The notes: generated by a model not told the origin, from the sequence alone. A stretch of DNA of 64,000 nucleotides from a bacterium (GCA_030603495.1 JAUVXR010000001.1:1-64000), one strand, 5' to 3'; numbered from the stretch's first letter, positions 26,215 through 55,835 are shown. Program-made: numbers and translations.

Positions 26215-26235
26215 GGAAAAGGCAGGCATCGCTAC

Positions 26236-37658: not shown

Positions 37659-38774
37659 ATGAATACCGCGGACTTCCCTGTAGCCGAATTGCACCAGGTG
37701 TTCAGTGAGACTAGGACGCTAGAGCAACTCGTGGACAGGCTTTCTCAGGTCTCCCAATATCTCCCACCCGAGAACAATATCGAAGAGCTTGTCCCTGGCA
37801 TTCTCGGCCTGTGGAGACACCTAGTCGCTACGAGGACTGATCCACACTTTTCGGGGACCTCGGAAAGTGTACCAGCATCCTTAGATACCCCTGAGCAGGA
37901 AACTGCTGGGTTTTCCCTAACCCATCAAATGCAGCACTTTCGGACCTTGAGAAAACGTGCGCTTCGTGGGACAGAAAGGTCAGGCTCAACGAGCGTACCA
38001 CCTGAATCTCTACCGGGCAATCGGGTGCAAGTGCGGGGGGCAACCTGTACTGTTCATGGAATTGTACACAACACGGGTCGGCGTGTGCTACTTGCGCCGG
38101 AATTAAAAAACTACATCAGCACCGCCATCAGATATAGCCACCAGCCTCGCAAAGGCGAAACGTACCTATGCGAGTCATCTTTTGCTGACCAATTTCATCT
38201 GGATCCGCACCACGAAATGGCTGACTCGAGCAGGTGGAAAGACTATGCGGCCCTTGAACGTACCGATGCTTCGTACTCGCATTTCTTTCCGGAGTATGCA
38301 CCTTTGGCTGGGGTTCTGGCGGAAGAACGTATCGCCGAGCGCTTACTCAGGAGGCTAGCTAGCGAGCACAAGCAACTATGGTCCCCTCTCATTCATTGTC
38401 TCAACCAGCCTTTGGCCAGTGTGAGCGACCTGGAGAGAGTTAGAGATCTCTACGCCTATATCGAGCTTCCACAGCCCCTTCAGACGGATTACCATAGATT
38501 TGTTATTCTGTGCTTGAAAGAGCTAGTATGCAAGCCTTCGTGGCGCCGGGAATATGTTCGCTGGTTGAGTTCTTTGTACCGAGCCAAACATATGGCTAGC
38601 CACGTTACAGAGTATATCCAGGAACATAATCTGCGCAGACTTCACATCCTCGTGGGACTTGCTCATGAATCATACATTGTATCTTTTCTCAATGACATGA
38701 ACTCTTACGGGGCAGGCGCACATGGTTGCTCAGTCAGCGGAAGCACTCATCAATCTCGCTGGAGCTCCGAATAA
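37659..38774 (+). CDS. Unknown protein, 371 aa
   Basis: MNTADFPVAELHQVFSETRT; predicted mostly helical and soluble. A small basic/beta patch sits in the middle (GNRVQVRGATCTVHGIVHNT) and a helical C-terminal half follows (ERIAERLLRRLASEHKQLW, LRRLHILVGLAHESYIVSFL). No motif recognised. Its 3' end overlaps the convergent 38734 gene by 41 bp, and the final residues (SVSGSTHQSRW) may be read-through past an ancestral stop. Confidence 0.6.
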   Translation: MNTADFPVAELHQVFSETRTLEQLVDRLSQVSQYLPPENNIEELVPGILGLWRHLVATRTDPHFSGTSESVPASLDTPEQETAGFSLTHQMQHFRTLRKRALRGTERSGSTSVPPESLPGNRVQVRGATCTVHGIVHNTGRRVLLAPELKNYISTAIRYSHQPRKGETYLCESSFADQFHLDPHHEMADSSRWKDYAALERTDASYSHFFPEYAPLAGVLAEERIAERLLRRLASEHKQLWSPLIHCLNQPLASVSDLERVRDLYAYIELPQPLQTDYHRFVILCLKELVCKPSWRREYVRWLSSLYRAKHMASHVTEYIQEHNLRRLHILVGLAHESYIVSFLNDMNSYGAGAHGCSVSGSTHQSRWSSE

Positions 38775-40449
38775 CCACATCCCAGCTAGCCTTCCAGGCC
38801 TCGCCTTCGCCTGGCAAGTCCACACCCTCTAATGCTCCCGCTATTTCTGGTTGCATCACCTTGTGGTCTGTGCTCGTGCTGTTCCCGAAGTCAGGGTGCC
38901 CGTCGAATACTTGGGCAAATGTCGTCCACCAGGCCCTGGTTGCTTTGTTAAGTTCCCGGAGCCAATCTCCAGGCTCTTTCTCACCGTTAGCTTGCTGGAT
39001 ACTCCATACGCTATTGCTTAGAGCTTTGGTGGTGACAGGATCTGTTACGGGTTGGCCCTCTGCTTCTAATGAACTCTTAACCTTATCACTTGCATGGGCG
39101 GCATTTACCTTTTGCAAAACCTGGTCGGTGGCTTCCTTGACTTGTTTGTAAGCCAGGCCTACACATTTGCGGATCATGTACGGCGCTTCCTCGGTTTGCC
39201 GTCCAGATTCCCTGGCTGTCTGCCACTGCCTGCGGAGCTCTTTTGGAGTAGGCTGATTTGATTTGCTTGCTTCCCTGCTTTCAACGTAGGGCAGATAACA
39301 CGGAATCCCTACTTGGCTAAGGGGCTGCGTCCGCTCTATGAAACCATCTGCCGCTCCTACGAGGGTTGCTTCATCGTCTGTGTCCCACATGTTCAAAGCG
39401 TCAGACAATACTCCCAGCCACTCTATCCGACACTGATTCTCGAATTCGGCGCATTCCACCATAAACTCAAATGATCTATCAATCGCCAGATAGTTAAGGA
39501 ATATTGCTGCACGGCGTTCTGTGAGCTCGATTTCTTCCGAACCAGTTCGTTGGCGCCAGAATCGTTCAGCGGCCTCCAGGTATGTGTCTACAAGGCGCTC
39601 TATCACGATACGGGGGCCCCACAGTTCTTGATCTGATGCAAACGCAGTCGTCACTGCGTCCTCGTCTTGGAATGCCGAGCGCATCCTGTTGCCATTTTGT
39701 GTCCAGCCACCAATTGGCGCCGCCGCCAGAATCGGTACTCTCCGCCTGATGGTCGAGCTCTGCGGTACAAACGGGATCGGGCCATAGCAGTACGGCGAGA
39801 CAGCAATGCTACTCTTATAGCTCATCGCGTAGCGCTCTAAGTCTTTAAACAGATTGGCAAGCGTCTTGTAAGCCAGCGAACGGGTGATTCCTTCTTGTAG
39901 GCAATTGAAGCGCATCTGTAGCAGTCTCAGTGTGTAGTTGATTAGGGCCAGGTCCCTAGCTACCTGAGCCGCTGCTAACGTGTCCACGACTTCGAATTCT
40001 ACCGCACGATGGGCTTTGTCCTGGCCTTTGAACTTGAGTACCAACCTGGCTAGACCGGAAGATAAGCTCTCTTCAGCTATCTCCCCAGGAAGATACAGAC
40101 GGACGCGATACCTCTTTTTTGTGCTCTCATCATGAATAACGCCATTCTGTGGTGAAATCATGCCGTGATCAAGCAGTATGTCTAAGCAGCGACTAATCCC
40201 ATGTGCAGATACGGTGCCCGCCAGGACTTGCTGCAACTGAGTAAATGAAATACCTTTTCTCGAGTTTCTCTCATCAATGAACTGTCGGGCGGTTCTGATC
40301 TTGGAGAAACTTAGCTCTGACTCGTCATCCGGCCTTTTCTCACGCTGCCCAACATGTTCATAAATAGCACAGGCAACGAAAATCTCTTCAGAAAACATCT
40401 GTGTAGGCTTCACTTGCTCAAATACGAAATCGCCGACTGGTGTGTCCAC
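38734..40449 (-). CDS. PRTase-associated winged-helix protein
   Basis: 571 aa. The N-terminus has a winged helix (about 55-120: ISFTQLQQVLAGTVSAHGIS, CLDILLDHGMISPQNG) ending in KKRYRVRLYLPGE. This resembles TRRYRPGEILRKG at the end of the winged helix in the nuclease-PRTase fusion at 51726. The remaining 430 aa are mostly helical, with no recognised catalytic motif. It starts with GTG overlapping the PRTase stop (TAGTG), so it is coupled to it. Confidence 0.75.
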   Translation of the reverse strand: MDTPVGDFVFEQVKPTQMFSEEIFVACAIYEHVGQREKRPDDESELSFSKIRTARQFIDERNSRKGISFTQLQQVLAGTVSAHGISRCLDILLDHGMISPQNGVIHDESTKKRYRVRLYLPGEIAEESLSSGLARLVLKFKGQDKAHRAVEFEVVDTLAAAQVARDLALINYTLRLLQMRFNCLQEGITRSLAYKTLANLFKDLERYAMSYKSSIAVSPYCYGPIPFVPQSSTIRRRVPILAAAPIGGWTQNGNRMRSAFQDEDAVTTAFASDQELWGPRIVIERLVDTYLEAAERFWRQRTGSEEIELTERRAAIFLNYLAIDRSFEFMVECAEFENQCRIEWLGVLSDALNMWDTDDEATLVGAADGFIERTQPLSQVGIPCYLPYVESREASKSNQPTPKELRRQWQTARESGRQTEEAPYMIRKCVGLAYKQVKEATDQVLQKVNAAHASDKVKSSLEAEGQPVTDPVTTKALSNSVWSIQQANGEKEPGDWLRELNKATRAWWTTFAQVFDGHPDFGNSTSTDHKVMQPEIAGALEGVDLPGEGEAWKASWDVVIRSSSEIDECFR

Positions 40450-41468
40450 TATGCCTCACCTACCAGTTCTATGGTTCTATCAACTACGCTGACCACTTCG
40501 TCCTGTAACAGGAAGTAACAGCAGCGCACAATCCGTTCATTGAAGCCTTGAAGTGCGACATTCATCCCTTCTTGTCTCAGTTCTGGGAGTGCTCTTCTAA
40601 GAAAACGGACCCCAAGCTGCAGGGATAGGTTGAAGTTGGCGCAATCCTGGCACAGTTCTGCCGAAGTAATTCCCCTAAAACGGTCCATGAAAGCGCAGAA
40701 TCTCACAGCAGGTGTTTCGCCAAAACACAGATTCGCTCGCGGCTCTTCTACCTCTTCCCGATAGAATGCCATCGGTACACAATGAATCTTCCCATCCCCC
40801 TCGACGTACAGACGGATCTTGACAACACCCTCTGGCACAAAATGGGACGGGGCCGCAATGCTCGCCGATATAGACTCGTTTGGAAACAGAGATGTATGGA
40901 GGACCCCTTCGTGAACTTGCCTAGCGGCGTAGTGCTCCAGCGTCCCAAACTCTCTCAGAGCCTGCCAAAACCGCTCAACTTCCAAGTTATCGCAACCGAG
41001 TTGTAAAACGACATGATCGTAGTCCAGGGGAAGACATGTCTCGTGGAGCAGTTCATTGAGGTCCGCTATCAGCAGCTGATAATCTCGCCCCCGAGGAATC
41101 TTCCAATAGCTCTTAGCGTAGTGGTCTGGAAGCAAGTGCAGTGGGACGTCTTCCCGGACCGCCAGCACAGCGACTTCGACCTTGGCGCCAACATTCTCCA
41201 GGAATGCCTTGGCCAAAGCTATCTGTCTGCCTGTTGCTATGGCGTCGTCCAGCACGACTATTTTCTTTCCTGCAAGTCCCCACCATGGATAGTAAAGGAT
41301 CTTGTCACACACAATAACCTTTTCAATGATTTGTGCCTCATCACCCACTGCGATGCGCAACAGTGCGAGGCCCTTCCGTCCCACAGCAAATATGTGGTCA
41401 AAGTCCTTTCTCAGGACCAAATCAATGAACTGCTGTATTTCATGTTCGAGCTCGCCGAATGCCTTCAT
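40449..41468 (-). CDS. Phosphoribosyltransferase with C-terminal Cys pair
   Basis: 339 aa. Type I PRTase core with the PRPP loop VVLDDAIATGR (71-81) preceded by HIFAVGRKGLALLR. The C-terminal half is not a standard hood; it carries ELCQDCANFNLSLQLGVRFL (CxxC at 273/276). The fusion protein at 51726 has the matching EQCLECSDFHGSVRLGAAFV, so this is a distinct PRTase subfamily. AGGAG plus ATGA overlap with the nitrilase gene. Substrate unknown; neighbours pyrE/pyrF suggest a pyrimidine or nucleobase. Confidence 0.87.
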   Translation of the reverse strand: MKAFGELEHEIQQFIDLVLRKDFDHIFAVGRKGLALLRIAVGDEAQIIEKVIVCDKILYYPWWGLAGKKIVVLDDAIATGRQIALAKAFLENVGAKVEVAVLAVREDVPLHLLPDHYAKSYWKIPRGRDYQLLIADLNELLHETCLPLDYDHVVLQLGCDNLEVERFWQALREFGTLEHYAARQVHEGVLHTSLFPNESISASIAAPSHFVPEGVVKIRLYVEGDGKIHCVPMAFYREEVEEPRANLCFGETPAVRFCAFMDRFRGITSAELCQDCANFNLSLQLGVRFLRRALPELRQEGMNVALQGFNERIVRCCYFLLQDEVVSVVDRTIELVGEA

Positions 41469-43183
41469 TGTTTGCTCCTGATACCAACGGCCCGAACTCG
41501 CCCTATCTTGTCTGGAAACTCTTCTACAAAAACCTGCACTATTGCCTCTGTCTCCGTCAATCCAGCCTCTTTTTTCCTTGCTATCCGGGCGATGACTTCT
41601 TCCTCAGAGCACTTCTGTAGCAATTCCCTTCGACATCGAGTCACCGACCAATCGTCTCTTTTACTCAAATCATGCTTGTCCACATACTGCCTTCGCACAG
41701 ACGTGTGGTTGACTTCCCTCTGGCGTTCTTTACACCACCCTATTCTGTCTGCCAGGCTCCGGTAGTCCGCGTGTTCCGGGCCGATTTCATCCGCGATTAG
41801 TGTCAAATACTTACTGAATTCGGACAGTTTGACGTACTGAAGCTCTTCCAATGTCTCGCCTGTCAGCGTTATCGCCCATGTGCGCACAAACCTATCCCAT
41901 GTCGATAGGTTCACATATTCCTCATTGGAGAATACAGAGCGCAGCCGGGACACCAGGACCTCGTTTCCAAGATATCGGGAAAAGAATGTATGAGCTTCTC
42001 GGCTGGCATACAACGCCATCCGTTCATCACTAAACCCGTGGGCCAACAGGTCGCCCAGCAAAGTCCGGTAAGTGATTTCCCTGCCGAACTTGTCCGGTAT
42101 CGTCTCTGAGTCGTAGTGCACAGGAATGAGAGCCACGGGACTGGTGGGCACGGGCTTTGGGACAAGCCCAAGAGTCCGATCGAGGTTCTGTCGTTCTGGT
42201 CTCGGGTCAACGTCCACTACTAGCATACCCTCGAATCCTGGGTCGAGGGGCCCATACATAGTGCCCTGACATCTCTCGTCGGTCAGCTGCTTGGTGTCGT
42301 ACCAGGCTATGAGTGTGCTGCATCCAAACTCTGCATTATTGGCGAAAACTACTGGCTTTTGCCATTTTTTGATGCTTATATCAAACATATCCCAGAATTC
42401 TTGTCCTGTCTTGACCCGCTCATCGCTGCTTGGCTTGGAGATTGGAGTTGAAGCAACCACCACGTGGAGTGGAAACTCCGGGCTCGAGTATTCGGCGCAG
42501 TCTGGCGGATGCTCATTGCACAGGAAGACAACTGTTTTGTACGCTCCTACCTGACATTTGAAGTGAAAGGGGCCCTTTCCTTTCTTCATGACGCGGGTTT
42601 CATACTGACTAGCATCTCTCTTGCCTCTAATGGCAGTATCGCCATCTGGTAAGAAGACCGGGCATAGGTTCTGCCGACGGTACTCCTCTTCGTCAATGGC
42701 AATACCTGCCTTCTCATAAGCGCCGTTTCTGATATCCTTGGCTCTGACATAGTGGGATCCCGCTATAATAGTCATTGGAGCTGCACGTGCCTTGCTCGCC
42801 GTATCCTGAAGACATCGGGCAGGTACGGAGAGTTCTGGGAAAACTACGAGATCGCAGCGCAAAAGTTTGCTCAAATCCAACACTTCTTGTACTCGTTCTG
42901 CAACCCAGTCTATGTGACTGTTCTCCACAACTTGTTGAGAGTCTGTCACCGCCTGTTCTACCTCTTCGTCCTGCAGGCCCCTGGCCCAGCATGTAATCGA
43001 GGAAGTTGGGGCCTTCCGCAGATTTTCCCAGCTATCCACCTCGCGGAGGGGATCAATGTAGCTTCCGGGTTCCTCCTCCACAGGAATCCATGGGATTGAC
43101 CTAAGCTGAGCAATCGCTACCCTGAGGTGGTTCTTTGATGGCTTTGCTAGTGGTTCCAAGCTTCCCGAATTCGCGTGCATCAT
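41465..43183 (-). CDS. Nitrilase-fold amidohydrolase, module A
   Basis: 572 aa. The C-N hydrolase triad is clear: Glu117 (VVFPELSVP), Lys188 (RGKRDASQYE) and Cys222 (VVFLCNEHPPD), at normal spacing. Substrate-loop insertions and a helical C-terminal domain of about 220 aa make it twice the usual length. The enzymes hydrolyse or transfer amide/nitrile bonds, for example amidating a product. Coupled to the PRTase by ATGA. A second, more diverged nitrilase-fold protein lies at 48967. Confidence 0.88.
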   Translation of the reverse strand: MMHANSGSLEPLAKPSKNHLRVAIAQLRSIPWIPVEEEPGSYIDPLREVDSWENLRKAPTSSITCWARGLQDEEVEQAVTDSQQVVENSHIDWVAERVQEVLDLSKLLRCDLVVFPELSVPARCLQDTASKARAAPMTIIAGSHYVRAKDIRNGAYEKAGIAIDEEEYRRQNLCPVFLPDGDTAIRGKRDASQYETRVMKKGKGPFHFKCQVGAYKTVVFLCNEHPPDCAEYSSPEFPLHVVVASTPISKPSSDERVKTGQEFWDMFDISIKKWQKPVVFANNAEFGCSTLIAWYDTKQLTDERCQGTMYGPLDPGFEGMLVVDVDPRPERQNLDRTLGLVPKPVPTSPVALIPVHYDSETIPDKFGREITYRTLLGDLLAHGFSDERMALYASREAHTFFSRYLGNEVLVSRLRSVFSNEEYVNLSTWDRFVRTWAITLTGETLEELQYVKLSEFSKYLTLIADEIGPEHADYRSLADRIGWCKERQREVNHTSVRRQYVDKHDLSKRDDWSVTRCRRELLQKCSEEEVIARIARKKEAGLTETEAIVQVFVEEFPDKIGRVRAVGIRSKQ

Positions 43184-43257
43184 AGATGCACCCCCATATT
43201 ATGGCACTGATGATTCAATCTTGGACTTTGGGAACTCCGCGTGTGAAAGTGGCTCAG

Positions 43258-43923
43258 TTATGGGTGAAAGCTGTAACCCCCGTCTTTGTGCCAGGTCTCA
43301 GGGTCCGCAAGGTAGGCCCTGATCGATTTGTGCTCCTCTTGTGTCAAGTACCCGCCACTCATGCCGAGAGTCAGGCACGTCTCCAAGTCTGATAGTCCGT
43401 GGAGTTGCACCCCAGCCTGCTGCAAGCGTCCAAGTCCGCCCTGCTGTCTATCGAATATGACGAGGCAGTCCGTCACTGAGCACTCGGCACCCCGAATTCC
43501 TTCGATAAAGGTGATTTTGCTCCCCCCATCAGTAATCAAGTCCTCACACAGTAGAACCGTTTTCCCTGATGGCAAGTGACCCTCTATTTGCGCCCCGACT
43601 CCGTGGCCTTTGGGCTCCTTTCGGACGTACACCATAGGCTTCCCAAGCCGGTCAGCTAGCCATGCAGCATATGGGATACCGGCAGTCTCTCCCCCTGCTA
43701 TGTAGTCTGCCTCGATTCCAACGTCTTCGTAGAGCCAGTGAGAACATCCAGTCACGATGCCGCGTGCCCACGGGTACGAAATCAGAACTCGGCAGTCTAC
43801 ATAAATTGGGCTCAGGTTGCCAGAGACAAGCCTGAAAGGCTCCTCGACTGAGACCTTGACTGCGGAAGTCTCCCACAGAAGACTTGAAATGGTGTCTCTA
43901 ACCTGCTCTCTCACCGCTGTCAC
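43258..43923 (-). CDS. pyrE: Orotate phosphoribosyltransferase
   Basis: 221 aa. OPRT signatures: YVRKEPKGHGVGAQIEG catalytic loop and the PRPP loop VLLCEDLITDGGSK. Converts orotate + PRPP to OMP. Start GTG at 43923 overlaps pyrF by 26 bp; a GTG at 43914 with GAAGG is equally good. The chromosomal copy is presumably elsewhere, so this is likely an accessory pair in the island rather than housekeeping. Confidence 0.92.
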   Translation of the reverse strand: MTAVREQVRDTISSLLWETSAVKVSVEEPFRLVSGNLSPIYVDCRVLISYPWARGIVTGCSHWLYEDVGIEADYIAGGETAGIPYAAWLADRLGKPMVYVRKEPKGHGVGAQIEGHLPSGKTVLLCEDLITDGGSKITFIEGIRGAECSVTDCLVIFDRQQGGLGRLQQAGVQLHGLSDLETCLTLGMSGGYLTQEEHKSIRAYLADPETWHKDGGYSFHP

Positions 43924-44665
43924 CTTCCGTTTCGAAATGCAATGCTATTTGGCAGAATGCTCCCGCGGCTTGGGTAACGTCGGCTGCCTTGTAGATACCG
44001 GAGCCGATTATGGCATACGCGGGGTGTCCCAATGTTGCGGCAAACGCCGTCTCGATATCGCCGCCCTGTCTTCCTATTCCCGGCAACAAGAAGCGAGGTG
44101 TTTGTATGGCCCCGCCAATCAACTTGGCATATTTCTCTACTGCACCAGGCCGGTTGCCAGGGACAACGAAATGAGTGACTCCTATATCAGCCGCAACTTT
44201 ATACATTCGGGCAGGGGCATCATCACTGAGGTACCCGCCGTCCTTCGACAAGTACCGAGGATGAGTCATCTCTCCGCCTACGATAGCTATCATGCCCTGT
44301 CCGATAATAGCGCGAAGCAGCGCCTCTTCTGTTTCTGGTCCTGCCTGAGGAAATACGATCGCGGCTGCGACTCCTGCCTCCTGCCAAACGCGCGTGAACT
44401 CTTCCGCAAGTTGAGGTATATCCGTGCCGGCCTTTTGATGATCATAGAGAATTGGCAGATTGGACTGCTCCTTTATTGCTCCAACAACATTGGCAAGTCC
44501 ATATGTTAGACCCAGAATAGCACCTACCTTGTACCCTACTATCCCATTGACGGTGCTTGTAGCTCCCACGAGCTTCGCGAGTTCGTCTAGGGTCTCCACG
44601 TCGCAAGCAGGAATGATTCCGTAGTCTCTCTCAAAGAGCCTTTCTTCGTTGTGTATTGCCTTCAT
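43898..44665 (-). CDS. pyrF: Orotidine 5'-phosphate decarboxylase
   Basis: 255 aa OMPDC barrel. IIPACDVETLDELAKLV opens the first strand, GYKVG holds the first Lys, and the catalytic charge network is YDHQKAGTDIP, a K-x3-D variant of the common DxKxxD. Phosphate-binding end: LLPGIGRQGG and AIIGSGIYKA. Makes UMP from OMP. GGAGG 6 nt before ATG; first gene of module A. Confidence 0.9.
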   Translation of the reverse strand: MKAIHNEERLFERDYGIIPACDVETLDELAKLVGATSTVNGIVGYKVGAILGLTYGLANVVGAIKEQSNLPILYDHQKAGTDIPQLAEEFTRVWQEAGVAAAIVFPQAGPETEEALLRAIIGQGMIAIVGGEMTHPRYLSKDGGYLSDDAPARMYKVAADIGVTHFVVPGNRPGAVEKYAKLIGGAIQTPRFLLPGIGRQGGDIETAFAATLGHPAYAIIGSGIYKAADVTQAAGAFCQIALHFETEGDSGERAG

Positions 44666-44882
44666 TGTTTTCCTCCGCTAGACGTTTCGGGCGCCAGTGG
44701 TGTGTTTCATAATCCACTGGACGCCAAGTCCACTACATGGACCGGACGGTCGAGTCACCCCAACACGCTTGGTGCCTTTTCCCCATCCTATTCTCCGTGG
44801 CCTCCGGTGTCAATATCTCTGCTGCCGGTACAGTTCGCCGTTGCACCTCCTTTCTCCTGCTGAGAACTTGCTGCCCTCGGCC

Positions 44883-44986
44883 CTAGCAGACATCCACCGG
44901 CCGCAGCTTGCCAGCGCTTCGTGATAGTGCTGGGGGTTGCACCTGTTATAGAAGCAGGCTACCACTCGTTCGAGTTTTGCGGGTGA
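44883..44986 (-). pseudogene. Transposase C-terminal remnant
   Basis: SPAKLERVVACFYNRCNPQH then YHEAL, and after a one-base shift KLRPVDVC and a stop. This is the LExxIxxFxxxYNxxRYHEALGxxxPxDVYxGR tail of rve-type transposases, broken by a frameshift and a stop. It lies in the 536-nt gap between modules A and B; the remainder (44666-44882, 44987-45201) shows nothing I can name. Confidence 0.6.
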
Positions 44987-45201
44987 AGTATAGATCACCA
45001 GCCCCAACTTGGCTCTAGCAGTGTGGTTAAGCTGCTCGAACCTGACTATGGAGTTGCGTCGAGAACCACCAAATACTAACATGTGACCTGGACTCGGTTT
45101 CGCACGCAAGGTGATATGAAGGGCCCGATTTCACAAGTATTCCGCTATGCTGGTCCCTGGCTTAATCTTCACATACACCCTGTTGCCTGACACAGCACAA
45201 C

Positions 45202-48200
45202 TCACCGCACCTCTTCCACCTGCGTGCCGCGGTCGCTGCCACCCCATGTCAATCGGTACGCTCGAAACCGTACGACGTCATCCCGGTTCAGACACGAGAA
45301 CTTGGCTCGTGCCAGATGGAACAGCTCACTCCGGCCCGTGGTCACAATTATCTGCATGCGTTCAGCAAGGACTCTCAACAAGTCCAGCAGTCCGTAAATA
45401 TTGAGTTCGTCCATCGCCTGCACAGGGTCGTCCAGTATGGCGAGTCTTAGTTGTCCTTCACGAGAAAGCGCCCCCGCCAAGAATGCTGAAAGTGCGATCA
45501 GATTCTGCTGCGCCTCGTTCATATAGGCCTGCACCAGCTTGCGATCGCTAACCGACTGGGATGTGGCTCCTCGCCTGGACAAAGCCCAGAACCGGAGGCC
45601 GCTCTCATCGACAGTCCAGCTTATGTCGTCAAATACGGGATGGCGTGCGAGTCTTCGATGAATGGTTCTCATTAGATCTCTCAGCGGCTCGAGTCCCTCT
45701 CGAACCAGCCGAGCTTGCTCGCGCTCCACAAGGCGACCGCATTCTTTACCGGCATGTTCCCACCGCTTGTTCTCGGATATCTTCGCATCTGTCTCCTCTA
45801 TTCTACGCTCGAGGTTGGCCATTTGTCCGTTAAGCTCTGCAAGCTGTCGCCGTGCCGATCTGACCTCGATAAACGCCAGAGCGGCACGACCCTCACGAAT
45901 CAGATCTTCAATATGAGTAAGTTCTCGGCGAAGATCGTCTACTGAGCCGGCCTCTTCCTTGTCGGCTTGGGCGGCCGTTCCTTGTAGCACTCGCAGGTCG
46001 CTTTCGATTATTGTCGCGAAGTCACGCGTTTGCTGAAGTGCAGCACGGGCCGAACTTGCGGCCTCCCGAGCTGGTGCCAGGGCCGCTAATTCGTGTTCCA
46101 GCTGCTCAACCATCTTTGCCTTCTTCTTCTCCACTTCAACGGCACGATCAGCATGAGCTTGTTCCTCAGTCTGTATCTGCTCTACTTGCTGGCCCAATTC
46201 AGCCTCATCGGCTGATGGGTGCCACGCGGCGGCCTCGAGCCGCTCTCGCGCCTGCTCCATGTCTTCCGCCAGCGGTACCCGCTGGGCCCGCAACTCACGG
46301 AGCTCACTTTGTATGGCTTCGCGATGCTCGGTCGCTCTATGAAGGCCTTCCCCCAACTCGAATGTCTGCGCTTGGAGCCGCTGCTCCTCTATGTGTACCA
46401 GTTCAAGGGCCTTTAGCCATTCCTTCTGCTCGCGTGCGACATCCGCCGCCGTCGTATCAGGCGGGAGATCACAACCGGCCAGGGCTTTCACCCGCTCATC
46501 CTTACGCCGAGTTAGTCTCTCGAGTTGAGACTCGAGCTCCCTCTTCCTAGTCTCGGCTACGCGTAGGGCTGCCTCGGACTTCTCAAGACGCTGTCCCGCT
46601 TCGGCAAGATTTTCCCGCGCCTCGTCCCGACGCTGAGCCAAATCGCTCTCTTCTCTCGTAGGGGCGCCAATCTGCCGGTCTATCGCTGCCAACAGGCCCT
46701 CTCGGCTAGGCCATTTGTGCGAACACAGTGGGCACTCGTTGCTGTCAGCGCCCTCCTGAAGCTCCCGCAGAATCTGAGCCCGGCGCTCCCGACCGGACCG
46801 TACTTCAGCAAGCGCACGCTCAAGATTCTCAAGACGTATGGCCTGGCAGTCTCTTTCTTGCCTGTTTGCCAACACTTCTTCTGTGGCTGCATAGACAGCG
46901 TGCTCTGCACGATCGTCCTCGGTAACTGCGCCCGCGTAACGCTCTTCCCTCTGGCCGTCAGCCTCCATTAGGCTGCGAAGCTTCGACAGCTTCTCAACCC
47001 GCGAGCTTGCTTCTTCGTGACGACGCTTCGCCTCTTCGACCACCGGCCGCAATGAGAATAGGCCCTCATTTGCTTCCCCTATATTGGCGCTTAGTTCCGC
47101 GCTTCGCCCCTCAAACACACCAATCTGGTCCGACATCTCGGCAAGACGCTTGCCACGTCGCGCCACCAACGGTCTTTCCCGAAGCCACCATTCGATCGCT
47201 TCCCGCCGCTGCGTACATTGCGCGCTTCTCTCTGCAATGCTCTTCAGAGAGTTCTCCAGTACGACGAGCGCTTCACGTAGTTCGCTTTCCCTTTCCGCCG
47301 CGTTCTTGCTCCGGCACTCAGCCGCTGATAGCTTCTCGGTCTCTTTATCGATCTCAGAGCGTACTGATTCAAGCTGTTGGCGAAGTTCCTCCAAATGAAT
47401 CGTTCGGTTTATGGTCTCCTGCACGCTTCGACGCTGCATGTCTAGGTGCTCGGTCACCTGCTCAACAACCGCTGCAAGAGACTGATCGTCAGTAGGCCTC
47501 TCGTCGAGAATGCCATGAATACCCGCTGGCCTATGATATTCGGTGGTGCCTCGCAAAAACTCCTCCGGTTCACCTACAGCGTCAACACCCGCGCCAGCTT
47601 TCTCTACCAACACCGCCTCCGAACGTTGTTGGTCTCTCAGGCCGGCCATCTGCTGGTCGAGCGACTCTTTTTCCTTCTGCAGGCCTGCCTCCGTCTTGGA
47701 GAGTTCCTGTACGATGGATTCCAACTTCCTTGTTGTCCGTGCCAGCCCGCGGTCCCCCAGCAGACTCGCGAAGTGAGCCAAACGCGCCTTCGGGTCCTTC
47801 GTCGAGAGCAGTTGTTTCATCTGGCCCTGTCCCAGAAACAACCGCGCGCTGCATCGCGCGCGCAGTTCAGCTTCTCGTTCGTACGTTTCAGGGGCCACAC
47901 CGAGCCACTGCCGCCAAAGTGCGCGTTCATCGAGCGGCGCCTCTTCGTCGAACTGCCGGCGCCCCGCCTCTTCCTCGACACAGTGAAACATCTGGCCAGC
48001 GGCAGCACGGAGCGTAACGTCAGCCGCTTGATCCTGCATGAACAGATTCCGTAGTGGTGAGTCGGTTGTCTCCGGCATCGCCTCGGTCGCCACCTGATCC
48101 GCGAGCTCGACCACGGCCCCGCAGATCGCCCACTCCAAGGCTTGAACGAAGCTAGTCTTTCCTGTGGCATTCTCACCGTATAGCAGTGTAATGTCCGAGG

Positions 48201-48966
48201 ACAAGTCCACCCGGACCGGACTTGCTCCATCACCTACACGGAACGACCGGAAATTGTGCAATGTGAGATCCTGCAATCGAACCCCGGACCCCGAGCGTCG
48301 GGACAGCTTCTGCCTCCGCGCATCGCCTTCACCCCCTACCAGCTCCTGGTCAAGGTCCACAGTAGACTGGATCGTCGGAGCCCTTCCGTACGCACCTCGC
48401 ATAATCTCCTGTGCAATCTGGTGCACGCCAGGCCGTGTACCTGCCAAACCGTCGGCCAGCTCGGCAGGTACTCCAGCCTCGCGCAGGAGCCTCGCCACTG
48501 CTGTCTTGCTAGACTCGGCAATAGGGGCCGACTGCGCAAGGGGCACAAAGGTAAGGTCCCCGAGTTGATCTGGCCACTCGGCACCATCATAACTCACAAC
48601 CTCCTTCATGCACTCGCTTCGAGAAGTCCTGATTCTGTGAAGGAGCGCTTCGCGCATGTCCAACGGCACACTGTCGAGCGATCTGACATCGACCAGAAAG
48701 AGTAGGTAGGCGTCTGGCCCGATACCCCCGCGCAAATGCCATTGACGCACGATCGATCCTAGCTCATGCTGCGCCTCTTGCCATCTCTTGCTCAAGCGGT
48801 CCCACGTCTCGCAACATTGGATCCCGAGCACGCCGCAAGGGAAGCTGTACACTGCCTCTAATTCGTCCGTCTCCACCGTTGACTCCCTATGCAGTTTCAG
48901 ATCAAGACCGCTCAAGCGTCGCTCGACTTGCGCAAGCAAATCATCGCGATGCAACCGTACTGTCAT
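45202..48966 (-). CDS. SMC/RecF-like ATPase with zinc hook
   Basis: 1254 aa. A 230-aa N-terminal domain precedes the ATPase N-lobe: LQDLTLHNFRSFRVG, Walker A GENATGKT (264-271). Long coiled coils (about 390-1050) are interrupted by a zinc-hook-like SNECPLCSHKW, and the C-lobe carries AILDDPVQAMDELN (Walker B/D-loop). SbcC/Rad50-like DNA-end or structure sensors have this layout, and such ATPases are common in defence systems. ATG directly follows the TAA of the nitrilase-fold gene with GGAGG upstream. The N-terminal extension may receive or pass a signal. Confidence 0.88.
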   Translation of the reverse strand: MTVRLHRDDLLAQVERRLSGLDLKLHRESTVETDELEAVYSFPCGVLGIQCCETWDRLSKRWQEAQHELGSIVRQWHLRGGIGPDAYLLFLVDVRSLDSVPLDMREALLHRIRTSRSECMKEVVSYDGAEWPDQLGDLTFVPLAQSAPIAESSKTAVARLLREAGVPAELADGLAGTRPGVHQIAQEIMRGAYGRAPTIQSTVDLDQELVGGEGDARRQKLSRRSGSGVRLQDLTLHNFRSFRVGDGASPVRVDLSSDITLLYGENATGKTSFVQALEWAICGAVVELADQVATEAMPETTDSPLRNLFMQDQAADVTLRAAAGQMFHCVEEEAGRRQFDEEAPLDERALWRQWLGVAPETYEREAELRARCSARLFLGQGQMKQLLSTKDPKARLAHFASLLGDRGLARTTRKLESIVQELSKTEAGLQKEKESLDQQMAGLRDQQRSEAVLVEKAGAGVDAVGEPEEFLRGTTEYHRPAGIHGILDERPTDDQSLAAVVEQVTEHLDMQRRSVQETINRTIHLEELRQQLESVRSEIDKETEKLSAAECRSKNAAERESELREALVVLENSLKSIAERSAQCTQRREAIEWWLRERPLVARRGKRLAEMSDQIGVFEGRSAELSANIGEANEGLFSLRPVVEEAKRRHEEASSRVEKLSKLRSLMEADGQREERYAGAVTEDDRAEHAVYAATEEVLANRQERDCQAIRLENLERALAEVRSGRERRAQILRELQEGADSNECPLCSHKWPSREGLLAAIDRQIGAPTREESDLAQRRDEARENLAEAGQRLEKSEAALRVAETRKRELESQLERLTRRKDERVKALAGCDLPPDTTAADVAREQKEWLKALELVHIEEQRLQAQTFELGEGLHRATEHREAIQSELRELRAQRVPLAEDMEQARERLEAAAWHPSADEAELGQQVEQIQTEEQAHADRAVEVEKKKAKMVEQLEHELAALAPAREAASSARAALQQTRDFATIIESDLRVLQGTAAQADKEEAGSVDDLRRELTHIEDLIREGRAALAFIEVRSARRQLAELNGQMANLERRIEETDAKISENKRWEHAGKECGRLVEREQARLVREGLEPLRDLMRTIHRRLARHPVFDDISWTVDESGLRFWALSRRGATSQSVSDRKLVQAYMNEAQQNLIALSAFLAGALSREGQLRLAILDDPVQAMDELNIYGLLDLLRVLAERMQIIVTTGRSELFHLARAKFSCLNRDDVVRFRAYRLTWGGSDRGTQVEEVR

Positions 48967-50892
48967 TTACTCGTCACCTCCCCGCGCCAGGCCCGGCACC
49001 TGTGCCAGGACGTGCCGCAGGCCCTCTCCTATAGCGCAAAGATCGTCTGCTCCATCCTCAAGCACGCAGTCCTCGATCGCCTGGATCGGTATAAGCAGCA
49101 ACGTAGCACGAGTTATATCTAGGTCATCCAAATCCTCACTGATAGGATAGGTCGATGCGCTCGGTCCTGTCAACCCTCCTAACGGTATGGCCTGGACCTC
49201 TAACTGTCCCCTCACACCGCATATGAGGTATATGTCCCCATCCTTCGCGTCCGAGCTAGCGTCCTCCACAACCCGTGCAGGAATATCGGACGATAGCAAG
49301 TCACACCCATCGCGAGAATGTATCGACGGCCCGTTCTTTTCAAGCCGAACCGCCGCCCGTCTCCCCGTCGTACCTGAAATAGAAGCGGCTTGAAGGGGGA
49401 ACCATGCATGTACCATTGTAAGTCCTGCAACAAGATGGCGAAGCCGATCTACATGGGTTGAATCCCAGGTGTCGGGTTGGGGCTTCAGATCATCCGGCCA
49501 AAAAACGAAGGCTTCCTGCCCCAACATCTGCAGGCACTCGCCATTGATCCCCCAGCAGACTCGTCTCAGTTCTTCGTAGCTATTTCTCAGACGCTGATAG
49601 AGCTGCTCCTGCACGGGACTCTGTTGAGACGGCTCCAGAAGATCCGTTCCGGTACTCGACCGCAGTTCGCATGGAAAGCCTCGCCAAGCCGCAAAGCGAT
49701 ATGCTTCGGGCACTGCCGCAGCGTCGCTAGTAAAGTCAACTCGGCCGTCAGACGGACGGATGCCTAGCCAAAGCCCCCCGGTAACAGGCTGAATTCCGGC
49801 CGCGCCAAAGGGCCCCGGCGTCCGTGAGGGGAGCCGCGCTTTGACTAAGAATGCTGATGCCCGGCGAGGTCTGAAGTCATAGCGAACGATGCTCTCACCG
49901 CGTCTACAACAACACTCAGGCGGGTCCTTCGCGTATCTACGATGCCCGCCAACCAATATGCCGGTGCAACCGTACTCGTCACGTTCCTCGCAAATTGCTG
50001 CGGCGTTGACCCTCACGACACTTGCACCCGAAACGGCCGCGCCCACCGCTTGTGGCGAATCCACAAGTAGCCGATAGAAGCCTGCCGCCATGAGTTCATG
50101 GTCAGGCTTTTGGTTATGCTGAATGTGGATGATCGCATCAAGCGTCCTGGGTGGCTCATCCCCCTGGAAATGCTCCACGATGCCCTGCGCCACTGAGCAC
50201 CCGCCGTCAGCCCCAGGTGCGTCCACGTTGAGCATGTCCGAGCAGATGGTGAAAGCGAAGGACGCCTGGTCAATCACCAGAATGTGGACGGTTTCGCCAG
50301 CACAGAGCGATTCCCGTTCTTGAGCACTCGGGCTGATCTTTCTCTGGAAGACTACGCCTGGTTCGCCATGCCGATCCCGCCAAGCGATCAGCATTGCGTT
50401 GACCCAGCTAGCGCTCGGGGATGCACGTGCCGCCATACGCCTGAGCTCTTCGTTCTGCCATTCTTGATCCGTCGCATAATCTTGCACAAATTGCTCATAT
50501 TCTTCCCGGCTCAGGCGCTCGATACCTGATACGACAAGCATGCCCGGATCCGTCTGCGCCTCCGCGACTGCCTCCAACAGCCCTCTCACGCATTCCTGCG
50601 GAGCCGCTAATTCGGGCAGGATTGCGGCATGAAGAGGCTGGAAATTCGCCGACACGCGTTCCTCCGGGTTAAGGACCAACTCGATGACTGAGTCGACGAC
50701 TTGCTTCTGGTTGTCTCTCGAGTCACCCTCGATACGGCCCACTTCATCGCCGCTCTGAACAACAGCATAAAGAGGCTGTACAAGCAGGAAGTTAAGGTCT
50801 CCAGCAGGATTCCAGCCCAGATCTACTGTGTTAGTCCTCGGTTCCATGTCAAACCTCGCCCTGCGGACACGCGCGGTATGTCGCCTTGCCAC
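48967..50892 (-). CDS. Divergent nitrilase-fold protein, module B
   Basis: 641 aa (627 aa if started at ATG 50847, which has GAGG upstream). Easy to miss, but the three catalytic positions of the C-N hydrolase fold are present at normal spacing: Glu94 (AAILPELAAP), Lys185 (VVFQRKISPSA) and Cys217 (AFTICSDMLN). Extra cysteines in a CCCRR motif and a 250-aa C-terminal region follow. Directly coupled to the SMC-like ATPase. With the module A nitrilase this makes two in one island. Confidence 0.75.
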   Translation of the reverse strand: MARRHTARVRRARFDMEPRTNTVDLGWNPAGDLNFLLVQPLYAVVQSGDEVGRIEGDSRDNQKQVVDSVIELVLNPEERVSANFQPLHAAILPELAAPQECVRGLLEAVAEAQTDPGMLVVSGIERLSREEYEQFVQDYATDQEWQNEELRRMAARASPSASWVNAMLIAWRDRHGEPGVVFQRKISPSAQERESLCAGETVHILVIDQASFAFTICSDMLNVDAPGADGGCSVAQGIVEHFQGDEPPRTLDAIIHIQHNQKPDHELMAAGFYRLLVDSPQAVGAAVSGASVVRVNAAAICEERDEYGCTGILVGGHRRYAKDPPECCCRRGESIVRYDFRPRRASAFLVKARLPSRTPGPFGAAGIQPVTGGLWLGIRPSDGRVDFTSDAAAVPEAYRFAAWRGFPCELRSSTGTDLLEPSQQSPVQEQLYQRLRNSYEELRRVCWGINGECLQMLGQEAFVFWPDDLKPQPDTWDSTHVDRLRHLVAGLTMVHAWFPLQAASISGTTGRRAAVRLEKNGPSIHSRDGCDLLSSDIPARVVEDASSDAKDGDIYLICGVRGQLEVQAIPLGGLTGPSASTYPISEDLDDLDITRATLLLIPIQAIEDCVLEDGADDLCAIGEGLRHVLAQVPGLARGGDE

Positions 50893-51725
50893 CTTACCTG
50901 GCAGGCCCAGTCCAGAGCGCCTCCTCCGCCCCTGCCATACCGTCCATAGTCAGCCGTCGATCCGCCCTGCGTTCTCTTCTCCTCCTCTGTACGCCCTTCT
51001 CATAACCCCCGTCGGTGACATCCACGTCCTGACACGCGCCGGTATTGCGTCCGTTAGCTCGCATACGTTCCTTGGAGTCTTCTCTCAGCCACAACTTGGC
51101 CCTATTTCTCCTCTCTGTCAACCTTCGCGCCCGACTGCTGCAAAGCTTCCTTCACCTTCATCTTCAGCGTCTAGTTGCCAATATTGTTTTCCTCGACGCT
51201 TACACCAGCGCAGTCTCGGCCCCTCGCACCACAAAGACACACCTCTCGATGGACCTCTCACTCGGCACGCTGAACAGTCTGGAGACAGTATCGCGCACGG
51301 TGCCTTCTTTAGGTCGCTGAGTTGATATTGAGAATACCACGGATGGCGAACTTTGACAAGAATACGCGATTCTGCACACAGCAGGCCTTAGTATGCGATG
51401 CGGAGACCCTAGCCCAAAACCAATCCCAGGGGCAGCGTCAGTATTTACAGTTCGCGGCCCAAAAAGCATGGTAAGGTAATCACCAGAAAGAACTCAGGCA
51501 GGAAGGCGTAGCCAAGCAGCAGGAGACGCAGGTATTATCGTAGCAACGGCGAAAAGAAGACCGTGTATCGACACAGCGCACTTGACTATCGACCACCAGC
51601 AGCAGTGGTGGCCTGGCCATGGCTGCAGGACCCCCGGCCCTCGTAGACGTCTACGGGACACAGCTCGCCCAGTGACAGCTAACTGAGGGGATCCAACTAC
51701 CATTGCTCCACGACCCTGCAGTTCT
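50893..51725. other. 833-nt gap inside module B
   Basis: No convincing gene. The minus frame 51200-51469 contains KEGTVRDTVSRLFSVPSERS followed by IERCVFVVRG, which looks protein-like but ends at 51200 and lacks a start signal; it may be a decayed gene. The gap could hold a separate promoter for the nitrilase-SMC pair. Confidence 0.4.
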
Positions 51726-53573
51726 TCATTCGTCGCAGCATTCTGTCCCCTGGCTCAATATGCTCAGGACATACTGCAGGGCAAAAGGCGTCCGGTCCCT
51801 GAAATAGATAGCGAGTTGATCTTCATCCACTAGCCAAGACCCTATACTCATGCCCCACTTGGTGATAGTCTCGTTGGCGAAGGCAACGAAGGCAGCCCCA
51901 AGTCGAACAGATCCATGAAAATCCGAGCATTCGAGACACTGCTCTGGCTGATTACCTCCATACCAGCTCGAGGGTAATCTCTCACAGAATGGCATCCCCC
52001 ATTCTCTCCGTCCCTTGCAGCTGGCGACTTGTTCAGGGGTTGGGTGTGTAATCTCTGGAAAGATAATAGGTACAATGGATAAGCAACCGCCCACGTCTAC
52101 GTATACCCTTATCTTACAAGCAGCCGACTCAGACACAAAGGAAGGCACCAAGACGTTCTTCGAAGAGAAGAACGTCGGGTTACTGACGGTCAACAGCCGC
52201 CTGCCGAAGACTCTGGCTGTCGATGGTAACGCGAACAAGATGCCAGCAGATTGCAGCCACCCATAGCAAGCGTGAAGATCGAAGTTCTCGGTGTCCATTT
52301 GTATGACGGTTCTTCCAGGCTCAAACGGTGGGCACAGCGCAGCTAGGCTTAGCGCGATAGCCGCCTCTTCCTCTGCGTACTCATCTCTATGTAGTATTTT
52401 CCAGAAGACCCCCTGTCTAGCGTCAAGCAGTGTGGGCTCGTCTGCAGACAGCAAGAGGGCGCAGGGTGTAACCCGTGCACCTAGCTCTTGCAGGCGGCGT
52501 GCTGTCTCCACTATCCTGGTCCCGGTGCTCACTGTGTCATCAAAAAGCAACACTTTCTTCCCTTGGAACTCAGTGCCAGGTACGTGACCCAGCACGGGGA
52601 GTGGGATCAGAGCAGTTGCGGGCATGTCGTTCTGCTTCAGGACTTGGTGAAGTAGACGAGCGCCCTTCCTCGCAATAGCGACGACATAATCGCAGTTGTC
52701 CTTGACCGCCGCCTTGAGAAACTCGCCTACGCCTTCGAAGTACTGTTCGATATGAGCAGCAGTAAATGCCCCCGCTGGATCAAGGGCAATGTTGACCCCT
52801 TTCCTCAGTATCTCACCGGGTCGATATCTCCTCGTGTATGTCTGCTTGGTCACCCCTTCGCAGGCCTCAGTTGGTTTCGCGACCCCAACCGGAACGAGAA
52901 GCCCCGTTTCTAGCAGCGTGTCCAGAGCCTCACTGATCTGCTCGGGGGTGAGCCAACCCAGCCCTTCCTTTAATTCAGAGACAGAAAGCCCCGGCTTCTC
53001 GGTCGAGGTGACTGCACCAGTCAGATATCCCAGAATCGCCTGACAGTTGCCGAGATCAGGTTCCGAGAGGTGCACGTCGGATGGCGGGAGGAGCTTCTTA
53101 TGGAATCCGGCCTCTACCATAAGAGAGACGATGCGATCCAAGTCTACGACTTCCACAGGAACCGGGTTCCTGGAGTTGTAGTCATGCACGCTCCGCTGCG
53201 CTTCGGCCGTCAGCTTCCCGTTGAAGACGAGTATGTACCTCTTAGGCCACTTCTCATCTACTTCGTGATGATGAACGAAGTGATCCATTGCGTCACTGAA
53301 TTGGGGCTTAGCTTCGGTTCTCCATCGTGCTTCGGAAATGTCGCCCGTCTTGATTTGAACCAGCAGAACCTGAGTTGTGCCGAGCACATCAAGAGCTCCA
53401 GGCACTATGGCCACGATGTCCTTGCCGTGTTCCGACGAGCCGTGAATGATATCGCTGCGCAGCCGCTGGGCCTGAAGGAACCGGTTAACGACGTCGCGCA
53501 GCTCCTCCTCACGCAGGGAGCGCAACAGGGCACCTAGCTCCTCAGCCCACCGAAAGTCGCTCTGCTCTGTCAT
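51726..53573 (-). CDS. Mrr-like nuclease - winged helix - PRTase fusion
   Basis: 615 aa from MTEQSDFRWAEELGALLRSL (GGGAGGAGG upstream; an ATG 33 nt earlier is less likely). The N-terminal restriction-endonuclease fold has GKDIVAIV...VLLVQIKTGD (Asp52, Gln73, Lys75 in an Mrr-like D...QxK). A winged helix spans about 185-260. A PRTase has PRPP loop VLLFDDTVSTGTR (342-354), followed by the Cys-pair domain CLECSDFHGSVRLG. The fusion links three functions that are separate proteins or absent in module A. Predicted DNA-targeting effector controlled by a nucleotide-metabolic sensor. Confidence 0.87.
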   Translation of the reverse strand: MTEQSDFRWAEELGALLRSLREEELRDVVNRFLQAQRLRSDIIHGSSEHGKDIVAIVPGALDVLGTTQVLLVQIKTGDISEARWRTEAKPQFSDAMDHFVHHHEVDEKWPKRYILVFNGKLTAEAQRSVHDYNSRNPVPVEVVDLDRIVSLMVEAGFHKKLLPPSDVHLSEPDLGNCQAILGYLTGAVTSTEKPGLSVSELKEGLGWLTPEQISEALDTLLETGLLVPVGVAKPTEACEGVTKQTYTRRYRPGEILRKGVNIALDPAGAFTAAHIEQYFEGVGEFLKAAVKDNCDYVVAIARKGARLLHQVLKQNDMPATALIPLPVLGHVPGTEFQGKKVLLFDDTVSTGTRIVETARRLQELGARVTPCALLLSADEPTLLDARQGVFWKILHRDEYAEEEAAIALSLAALCPPFEPGRTVIQMDTENFDLHACYGWLQSAGILFALPSTARVFGRRLLTVSNPTFFSSKNVLVPSFVSESAACKIRVYVDVGGCLSIVPIIFPEITHPTPEQVASCKGRREWGMPFCERLPSSWYGGNQPEQCLECSDFHGSVRLGAAFVAFANETITKWGMSIGSWLVDEDQLAIYFRDRTPFALQYVLSILSQGTECCDE

Positions 53574-53596
53574 CGGAATCCTCCTCCCGGAACACC

Positions 53597-53890
53597 TCAC
53601 GGGCATCTGCGCTCCGAGTATGCCATCGCTGCGCTATGAATGTCAAGATCAAGACCCGGACCCAGATACGTCCTTAACCCGCTGAAACGGCCTTCTGGCG
53701 CCATGGGCGGCCACTTCCGTTCGCGGCGCGCCGGGTGCATCCGCCTGTCGTGCAGTTGAGGAACCCTCTTCAGAACGCGTGAAGCTGCCAACACATGCGC
53801 ACACTTTGCACAAACCTCGCAAATATTATCGCCACAACTCACTGCGTATCGGACGGGATCATGAGCCGCTCTCGTTGTCGATGCAAGCAT
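53597..53890 (-). CDS. Possible small zinc-finger protein
   Basis: From MLASTTRAAHDPVRYAVSCG it contains CGDNICEVCAKC, a plausible zinc knuckle, then a basic stretch (LHDRRMHPARRERKW). It ends 23 nt before the nuclease-PRTase gene in the same direction. The ribosome site is weak and the C-terminal half unstructured. The rest of the 53607-54157 gap shows nothing else. Confidence 0.3.
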   Translation of the reverse strand: MLASTTRAAHDPVRYAVSCGDNICEVCAKCAHVLAASRVLKRVPQLHDRRMHPARRERKWPPMAPEGRFSGLRTYLGPGLDLDIHSAAMAYSERRCP

Positions 53891-54157: not shown

Positions 54158-54742
54158 TCAGCCACTTGGAAGGTGATCCGCAGCGAGGTGCATCACTTCG
54201 CCCTCTCCGGTACCGTGCAGCCCTGTTAGCCCTGTTGGCAGCTGACTATCGTGCGCTGTTCTCCGAAGCTCGTCAAGCGCAGCGAGCTGAGCCGCCTCGT
54301 TTGCGAGACCGACGATCTCTCCCAGCCGCCGCCCAGAGTAGAGCTGTTGCTCCCCAGGGGGAAGGGATATAACGTACTGCCGGATCTCCTCGGGTAGACG
54401 GAGCAGACTCATAACCTGCGTAACCCTGGCTCTGCTCAACTTGTACCTTCGCGCAATCGCCGCTCGATTGTTAACCACTTCGGCCTCCAAGAGTTCCTGA
54501 AACTCATAGGCAAGTAGCAGAGGATGCCTGTAAGCACTGCCTTGAGATTCCTCAATGTCGGGTTTTGCCCGTCGTTTCAGGCTTTCTGGGCAAAATGTAA
54601 ACCGCTCGAAAAAGTTCCTGCAGTTGTCCGCCCCGGGGAGCCAAGAGAGGACAACAGGGGGGACTGTAGCCGCCTGTTCAGCGGTGTCCCCTTTGTTTTC
54701 CGATGGCCCAAGCTTACTCGCCGGCTGCCAACACAGGATCAA
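54158..54742 (-). CDS. ParB-like HTH protein
   Basis: 194 aa. HPLLLAYEFQELLEAEVVNN then RAAIARRYKLSRARVTQVMS LLRLPEEI: the KorB/ParB-type helix-turn-helix seen in proteins of the form 'AxLLxxEWQxLLDxG-xxRAEIARRxGxSRARVTQ'. The start is a TTG overlapping the xerC-like stop (TTGA), so it is coupled. No CTPase motif of true ParB. Probable DNA-binding partner of the recombinase. Confidence 0.7.
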   Translation of the reverse strand: MILCWQPASKLGPSENKGDTAEQAATVPPVVLSWLPGADNCRNFFERFTFCPESLKRRAKPDIEESQGSAYRHPLLLAYEFQELLEAEVVNNRAAIARRYKLSRARVTQVMSLLRLPEEIRQYVISLPPGEQQLYSGRRLGEIVGLANEAAQLAALDELRRTAHDSQLPTGLTGLHGTGEGEVMHLAADHLPSG

Positions 54743-55810: not shown

Positions 55811-55835
55811 AACCTCCGGCCCCAATTTGTCCACA

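What the first reader, a model, noticed from the sequence alone, without database searches (positions are those of the whole stretch)
38734..53573. Duplicated nitrilase + Cys-pair PRTase + winged-helix toolkit: candidate new defence or nucleotide-signalling system
Module A: pyrF-pyrE-nitrilase-PRTase-winged helix. Module B: nuclease/winged helix/PRTase fusion, divergent nitrilase, SMC-like ATPase. Both PRTases carry the same unusual C-terminal domain (LCQDCANF and CLECSDF), and the winged-helix end (RYRxxxxLPGE and RRYRPGE) is separate in A but fused in B. The fusion and repeated co-occurrence imply that these parts act together. A nucleobase- or nucleotide-modifying step (PRTase, amidohydrolase, OPRT, OMPDC) coupled to DNA effectors (Mrr-like nuclease, SMC) suggests a system that senses or produces a modified nucleotide during infection.
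Basis: partly seen in the sequence, partly recalled or inferred. Interest (0 to 1): 0.88.

Follow-up and report, generated by a model that had tools for sequence, protein, structure and literature searches.

The report
Pyrimidine-gene operon with swappable effectors
Beside an ordinary Lamassu-type phage-defence pair sits a rare, apparently undescribed operon in which two pyrimidine-making enzymes, a phosphoribosyltransferase and a DNA-binding domain travel with an interchangeable effector (an amidase here, an NAD-cutting enzyme in two other bacteria), which suggests a defence system tied to pyrimidine metabolism.

Summary
'Module B' is two things. 45202-50892 is a Lamassu pair: LmuB, plus LmuA with a C-N hydrolase (nitrilase) domain. 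A 52%-identical LmuA with its LmuB stands without the PRTase gene in another genome of the phylum. 51726-53606 is a separate nuclease-wHTH-PRTase fusion. Module A (38734-44665) is a compact operon: pyrF, pyrE, nitrilase, PRTase, wHTH-helical protein. Its layout recurs in a genome of the same order and in a Nitrospinota genome, with SIR2 in place of the nitrilase and the same wHTH fused to the PRTase's C-terminus. The PRTase family was found in only 2 of 291 genomes of the phylum. This host keeps other pyrE and pyrF genes. So a PRTase-wHTH unit occurs with three different effectors (nitrilase, SIR2, nuclease), the first two together with pyrF-pyrE. The likeliest reading is an abortive-infection-type system whose effector is gated by PRPP or pyrimidine state. 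The mechanism, and phage defence itself, are inferred. The 'modified nucleotide' idea is weakened, because one SIR2-type PRTase has lost the acidic pair of its PRPP motif.

The parts
43898..44665 (-). pyrF: OMP decarboxylase of the YDHQKAGTDIP type, first gene of operon A
   Evidence: PF00215 2.1e-12; nearest relatives mostly archaeal; the genome has further PF00215 genes on C14 and C1
43258..43923 (-). pyrE: orotate phosphoribosyltransferase, second gene of operon A
   Evidence: NF001729 3.1e-63; motifs YVRKEPKGHG and EDLITDGGSK intact; the genome has another pyrE at C24:92678, 34% identical
41465..43183 (-). nitrilase-superfamily protein (572 aa), probable effector of operon A
   Evidence: PADLOC RT_UG5-nitrilase 1.3e-8 and RTasNitrilase 1.4e-7; E117-K188-C222; same operon position as SIR2 in L018 and L070
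40449..41468 (-). class I PRTase (339 aa) with four-Cys tail, probable sensor or regulator of operon A
   Evidence: PF00156 2.9e-6; homologous to 51726-53606, L070 and G031 PRTases
38734..40449 (-). winged helix (about residues 55-135) followed by a mostly helical region (571 aa)
   Evidence: wHTH homologous to those of the other PRTase loci; helical part without detectable relatives
51726..53606 (-). single-gene fusion: OloB-type nuclease-like domain, winged helix, PRTase with four-Cys tail (626 aa)
   Evidence: OloB 1.8e-8; PRTase 3e-22 to A; wHTH 4e-5 to A
48967..50892 (-). LmuA with N-terminal C-N hydrolase (nitrilase) domain: Lamassu effector, separate system
   Evidence: PADLOC LmuA 1.8e-14; 52% identical to G041 LmuA, triad conserved
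45202..48966 (-). LmuB: SMC/Rad50-like ATPase of the Lamassu pair, separate system
   Evidence: PADLOC LmuB 9.8e-62; SMC_N 1.4e-11
44785..44813 (-). promoter-like site upstream of pyrF (TTGACA-17-TAGGAT)
   Evidence: weak: 15 such sites in the region, 8.5 expected

Best explanation
The region is a defence island with three independent units: (i) a two-gene Lamassu with a C-N hydrolase effector; (ii) a one-gene nuclease-wHTH-PRTase; (iii) operon A, the interesting one. Operon A (pyrF, pyrE, effector, PRTase, wHTH, helical protein) is a compact unit found at unrelated chromosomal places. Its effector is interchangeable: nitrilase here, SIR2 in two other genomes, and, in unit (ii), a nuclease fused directly to the same PRTase-wHTH pair. 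Shown by sequence: composition, PRTase-wHTH homology, recurrence, effector exchange, and surplus pyrE/pyrF in this host. Inferred mechanism: the PRTase-wHTH pair (with the helical protein) is a regulator that holds the effector silent while it reads PRPP or a pyrimidine nucleotide. PyrE and PyrF, which turn orotate and PRPP into UMP, set or report that signal inside the system. Infection disturbs the pool, the effector is released and destroys a central metabolite (NAD+ for SIR2, an unknown amide for the nitrilase), which stops the infected cell.
For: Same gene order in L018 (G031:C680) and L070 (Nitrospinota): pyrF-pyrE-SIR2-[PRTase-wHTH]-helical-wHTH2. PRTase homology A/B 3e-22, L070/A 1e-10, L070/G031 2e-41. 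The same wHTH, ending in a YxPxxE-like strand, follows the PRTase in A, L070 and G031 and precedes it in B. Genes overlap or nearly touch in all three operons. The chromosomal neighbours differ: recombinase, PDC-S68 and DprA-like gene in G031; a DEAD-box helicase and mraZ/rsmH-like genes in L070 (by eye); Lamassu and a tyrosine recombinase here. So the pyr pair appears to move with the system. Other pyrE and pyrF in the host. The PRTase family was seen in 2 of 291 genomes of the phylum, both with pyrF-pyrE. PyrE/PyrF motifs are intact in all three, while the PRPP-motif acids of the G031 PRTase are changed to NE, as expected if the PRTase senses rather than synthesises. SIR2_2 domain 1e-20 with GAGMS, TTNFD and HLHG motifs. 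Nitrilase is an effector in DRT1 (PMC13275509). UMP synthesis changes early in a phage infection (PMC10986495).
Against: No functional data. Only three operons found, all in draft genomes; the L070 SIR2 is split by a frameshift. No second pyrF of the usual housekeeping type was seen in G031 or L070, so surplus status is firm only here. The helical part of A has no detectable homology to the other helical genes. The nitrilase call rests on PADLOC profiles and triad spacing; structure predictions failed (pLDDT 43 and 42). Ligand, toxicity and phage protection are untested. The three pyrF genes do not form one well-supported clade.
Confidence: 0.4

Rival explanations
1. PyrE and PyrF are not part of sensing. 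They are an antidote or resupply pair that restores UMP when the effector or PRTase drains PRPP or pyrimidines, or they are decoys hit by phage inhibitors of pyrimidine synthesis, which triggers the effector.
For: Same operon evidence; PyrE/PyrF motifs intact in all three operons; surplus copies in the host; UMP synthesis is altered early in a phage infection (PMC10986495).
Against: SIR2 would drain NAD+, not UMP, and the nitrilase substrate is unknown, so a UMP antidote fits neither obviously. No phage protein aimed at PyrE/PyrF was sought here.
Confidence: 0.25
2. pyrF-pyrE is a metabolic passenger. A PRTase-wHTH-effector cassette happens to lie beside a pyrimidine gene pair and does not use it.
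For: A closely related pyrF-pyrE pair lies in a purely metabolic setting in an Aerophobetes genome (L041). In G031 and L070 no other housekeeping-type pyrF was found.
Against: Same order in three genomes with different flanks, tight or overlapping junctions, and surplus copies in this host.
Confidence: 0.15
3. One reading: PRTase, OPRT, OMPDC and amidase make or sense a modified nucleotide that signals infection to DNA effectors.
For: The set of enzymes could act on nucleotides; the PRPP motif is intact in A, B and L070.
Against: The G031 PRTase has lost the acidic pair. The amidase is replaced by SIR2 in two loci. The SMC protein belongs to an independent Lamassu pair.
Confidence: 0.1
4. Operon A is a toxin-antitoxin-like stabiliser of the mobile island rather than an antiphage system.
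For: It lies in islands with recombinases; toxic-type enzymes (SIR2, nitrilase) beside putative regulators.
Against: Size and complexity are unusual for a stabiliser, and effector exchange with SIR2 and nitrilase is more typical of abortive infection. The two roles overlap.
Confidence: 0.1

Closest known systems
Lamassu (LmuA-LmuB, C-N hydrolase effector)
   Same: 45202-50892: SMC-like LmuB beside LmuA with a nitrilase-type N-terminal domain; the review PMC10586767 lists C-N hydrolase among LmuA effectors.
   Different: No LmuC, which some systems lack. It does not include operon A or the fusion gene.
Retron type III-A1 PRTase / winged-helix effector pair (PRTase-CE)
   Same: A PRTase paired with a winged-helix protein (PMC12548924).
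   Different: No RT or retron RNA found here; window PRTases are not matched by PF24390 or PRTase_III-A and the profile comparison gives only the PRPP loop; pyrF-pyrE and effector genes are added.
DRT1 / DRT5 RT-nitrilase systems
   Same: The nitrilase of A is closest to RT-nitrilase models (1.3e-8); nitrilase is the effector in DRT1 (PMC13275509).
   Different: No reverse transcriptase in or beside operon A.
ShosTA / PsyrTA and DprA-PRTase systems
   Same: A PRTase in a defence operon; weak ShosT profile match (2.4e-4).
   Different: No DprA-like partner next to operon A; different accessory genes.
PurR-type transcription regulators (wHTH + PRTase, PRPP-responsive; own knowledge)
   Same: Winged helix fused to a PRTase-fold domain, as in the fusion gene.
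   Different: Here combined with a nuclease-like domain or with effector genes; ligand untested.

Membership tests
Lamassu (45202-50892) | SMC/Rad50-like LmuB with Walker A | tested here: met
   PADLOC LmuB 9.8e-62; GENATGKT in the sequence
Lamassu (45202-50892) | LmuA with an N-terminal effector domain, adjacent to lmuB | tested here: met
   PADLOC LmuA 1.8e-14; adjacent genes; triad E94-K185-C217 also in G041; C-N hydrolase is a listed LmuA effector
Lamassu (45202-50892) | LmuC middle protein (optional) | tested here: not met
   LmuA and LmuB are directly adjacent, here and in G041; the review says LmuC is lacking in some systems, so not a defining feature
Lamassu (as home for the fusion gene or operon A) | PRTase gene as a conserved part of the Lamassu operon | tested here: not met
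   G041 LmuA-LmuB without any PRTase gene; PRTase loci G031 and L070 without SMC in the operon
Retron type III-A | Reverse transcriptase and msr-msd RNA | tested here: not met
   No RT among the annotated neighbours and no retron RNA family in 34000-56500
Retron type III-A | PRTase of the PRTase-CE / PRTase_III-A family | tested here: not met
   No PF24390 or PDLC02933 match in the window genome; hhalign probability 0.8%
DRT RT-nitrilase | RT domain or RT gene | tested here: not met
   only the nitrilase portion of the model matches
ShosTA / PsyrTA | PRTase toxin with DprA-like antitoxin | tested here: not met
   No DprA family match in operon A; PRTase match weak
Candidate pyrF-pyrE-effector-PRTase-wHTH operon (proposed here) | Same gene set and order at unrelated sites in other genomes | tested here: met
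   Window, L018 (G031), L070
Candidate pyrF-pyrE-effector-PRTase-wHTH operon (proposed here) | Homology of every component between nitrilase and SIR2 types | tested here: inconclusive
   pyrF, pyrE, PRTase and wHTH yes; effector differs by design; helical part no detectable homology
Candidate pyrF-pyrE-effector-PRTase-wHTH operon (proposed here) | Protection from phage | not testable with these tools
   needs an experiment

The most novel reading that the evidence does not exclude
A previously undescribed class of abortive-infection systems in which UMP synthesis itself (PyrE, PyrF) is a working subunit, and a PRTase-winged-helix sensor of PRPP or pyrimidine state controls an exchangeable effector (nitrilase, SIR2 or a fused nuclease).
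Probability: 0.3. Interest if true: 0.85.

Novelty: new variant of a known kind. Interest (0 to 1): 0.62.

Why it matters
If operon A is defensive, it would join an intact pyrimidine-synthesis pair to immune effectors in one operon, and make the question of how bacteria read nucleotide-pool changes during infection directly testable. It would also define a PRTase-winged-helix control unit that occurs with at least three different effectors. For the scan, it shows that the SMC/nitrilase pair next door is ordinary Lamassu and should not be counted with it.

Tried and rejected
Module B as a unit: rejected, because LmuA-LmuB stands without the PRTase gene in G041. Nitrilase duplication: no convincing direct similarity. 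Window PRTases as PRTase-CE/retron family: rejected. pyrF-pyrE as the host's housekeeping genes: rejected for this genome. Searches for relatives of the PRTase, nitrilase, fusion, LmuA, wHTH-helical and L070 proteins in plasmids, phages or viral contigs gave nothing, or only the nuclease-like domain in a Novosphingobium plasmid. The pyrF scan of genome contigs mostly returned archaeal pyrF genes, metabolic where inspected, but it led to L070. Structure predictions of the PRTase (pLDDT 43) and nitrilase (pLDDT 42) were too poor to use, so no fold search was made. Archaeal pyrF loci that group near the window copy (L060, L062, L072) are in metabolic settings. Literature: no paper in the held library joins Lamassu with phosphoribosyltransferase, or orotate PRTase with defence islands and SIR2; most subscription papers and preprints are not in that library.

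Full report
What is there. On the minus strand the region holds three separable units. Unit 1 (45202-50892) is LmuA-LmuB. LmuB matches the PADLOC Lamassu model at 1e-61 and LmuA at 1.8e-14. The only homologue found in the phylum, in G041, has an LmuA 52% identical over its whole length that keeps E94, K185 and C217, sits next to its own LmuB and has no PRTase gene upstream. A review lists C-N hydrolase among Lamassu effectors and says LmuC can be missing (PMC10586767). This part is a known kind.

Unit 2 (51726-53606) is a single gene: an OloB-type nuclease-like N-terminal domain, a winged helix and a PRTase. An 833-bp gap with a terminator-like site separates it from LmuA, and a promoter-like site lies just upstream of its start (such sites are less than twice as frequent as in shuffles, so this is weak evidence).

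Unit 3, operon A (38734-44665), is pyrF, pyrE, nitrilase, PRTase, wHTH-helical protein. The nitrilase and PRTase genes overlap by 4 bases, the PRTase and wHTH genes by 1. The PRTase is homologous to that of unit 2 along 300 residues, including four conserved cysteines. The winged helix is homologous too. The nitrilase-like protein matches RT-nitrilase models (1.3e-8, 1.4e-7) and has E117-K188-C222; its K-to-C spacing of 34 is close to the 32 of LmuA (by eye). No Pfam or PDB sequence match to a nitrilase was obtained, so this assignment is good but not final.

Recurrence. The host genome has another pyrE (C24) and other OMP-decarboxylase-family genes (C14, C1), so the window pair is surplus here. 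pyrE and pyrF led to two more operons: G031:C680 of the same order (L018) and a Nitrospinota genome (L070). Both read pyrF-pyrE-SIR2-[PRTase-wHTH]-helical-wHTH2, again with touching or overlapping genes. The two agree throughout: PRTase 2e-41, wHTH2 4e-25, helical 1e-6. Their PRTases are related to that of the window (L070 vs A 1e-10). The C-terminal winged helix of these PRTases is the one that in the window begins the next gene: same domain order, shifted gene boundary. The helical part itself shows no detectable homology between the window and SIR2 types. The flanks differ in all three places, so pyrF-pyrE appears to travel with the system. In the phylum the PRTase family was seen in 2 of 291 genomes, and a set of 373 relatives added none. 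It is absent from the plasmid and phage collections at the sensitivity used.

What it probably does. A PRTase-winged-helix pair occurs with three different effectors: nitrilase, SIR2 and, by fusion, a nuclease-like domain. Exchange of a toxic enzyme around a fixed control part is a usual pattern of abortive-infection systems (established knowledge). PyrE and PyrF keep their motifs in all three operons, while the G031 PRTase has NE in place of the DD of the PRPP motif. I therefore read the PRTase as a sensor or regulator rather than a maker of a modified nucleotide, and PyrE-PyrF as the enzymatic part of the signal. Phage infection alters UMP synthesis in a lactococcal host (PMC10986495). A nitrilase domain is the effector of DRT1, where the substrate is still unknown (PMC13275509). 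All mechanistic steps are inferred. That the operon is real, recurrent and effector-exchanging is shown by sequence.

Known relatives. Retron type III-A1 also pairs a PRTase with a winged helix (PMC12548924). The window PRTases are not matched by that family, and neither an RT nor a retron RNA was found here, so operon A is not a retron. It is not a DRT (no RT) nor a ShosTA/PsyrTA pair (no DprA partner). The most careful label is a new combination of known defence parts with a pyrimidine-synthesis pair. Whether that pair is a working component is the open question that decides its importance.

Limits. Three operons only, all from draft genomes. In G031 and L070 no second pyrF of the usual housekeeping type was found, so a metabolic role there cannot be excluded. 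The L070 SIR2 is split by a frameshift. Tree support for a common origin of the three pyrF genes is weak. Structure predictions were not usable.

Noticed in passing
window 55833-56339 (-) and 54739-55665 (-): A full bacterial class A RNase P RNA (278 bits) lies directly beside a tyrosine recombinase gene at the edge of the island; possible integration next to rnpB.
   Followed up: no
window 12089-13243, 25024-26319, 54739-55665, 31546-33585, 16500-18164: Three tyrosine-recombinase genes in one window, with a HerA-like ATPase and a ThiF/E1-like gene that matches an E1-E2 defence model: a larger mobile/defence island.
   Followed up: partly
window 34000-36000: Strong GC skew (-0.32) with 17- and 18-base tandem repeats at 34521-34659.
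   Followed up: no
window 60863-62104 and 62104-63168: A phage portal protein gene next to a group 1 glycosyltransferase gene that also matches GT4-conflict: possible prophage remnant.
   Followed up: no
L018 14159-17974, 18009-18662, 3803-5155: The G031 operon lies near a PDC-S68 candidate defence gene (E 0), a DprA-like gene and a serine recombinase.
   Followed up: partly
L021-L100 (pyrF relatives): A PyrF type with YDHQKxGTDIP in place of the usual DxKxxDIP spacing is widespread in ANME-1, Thermoplasmata and DPANN archaea.
   Followed up: no
L103 (G139:C16): A PRTase-CE gene next to an AAA-type ATPase gene that looks like a different PRTase conflict system in the same phylum.
   Followed up: no
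L070 8198-9264: SIR2 gene split into two ORFs by a frameshift near 8725; the half with the HLHG motif continues in another frame.
   Followed up: partly
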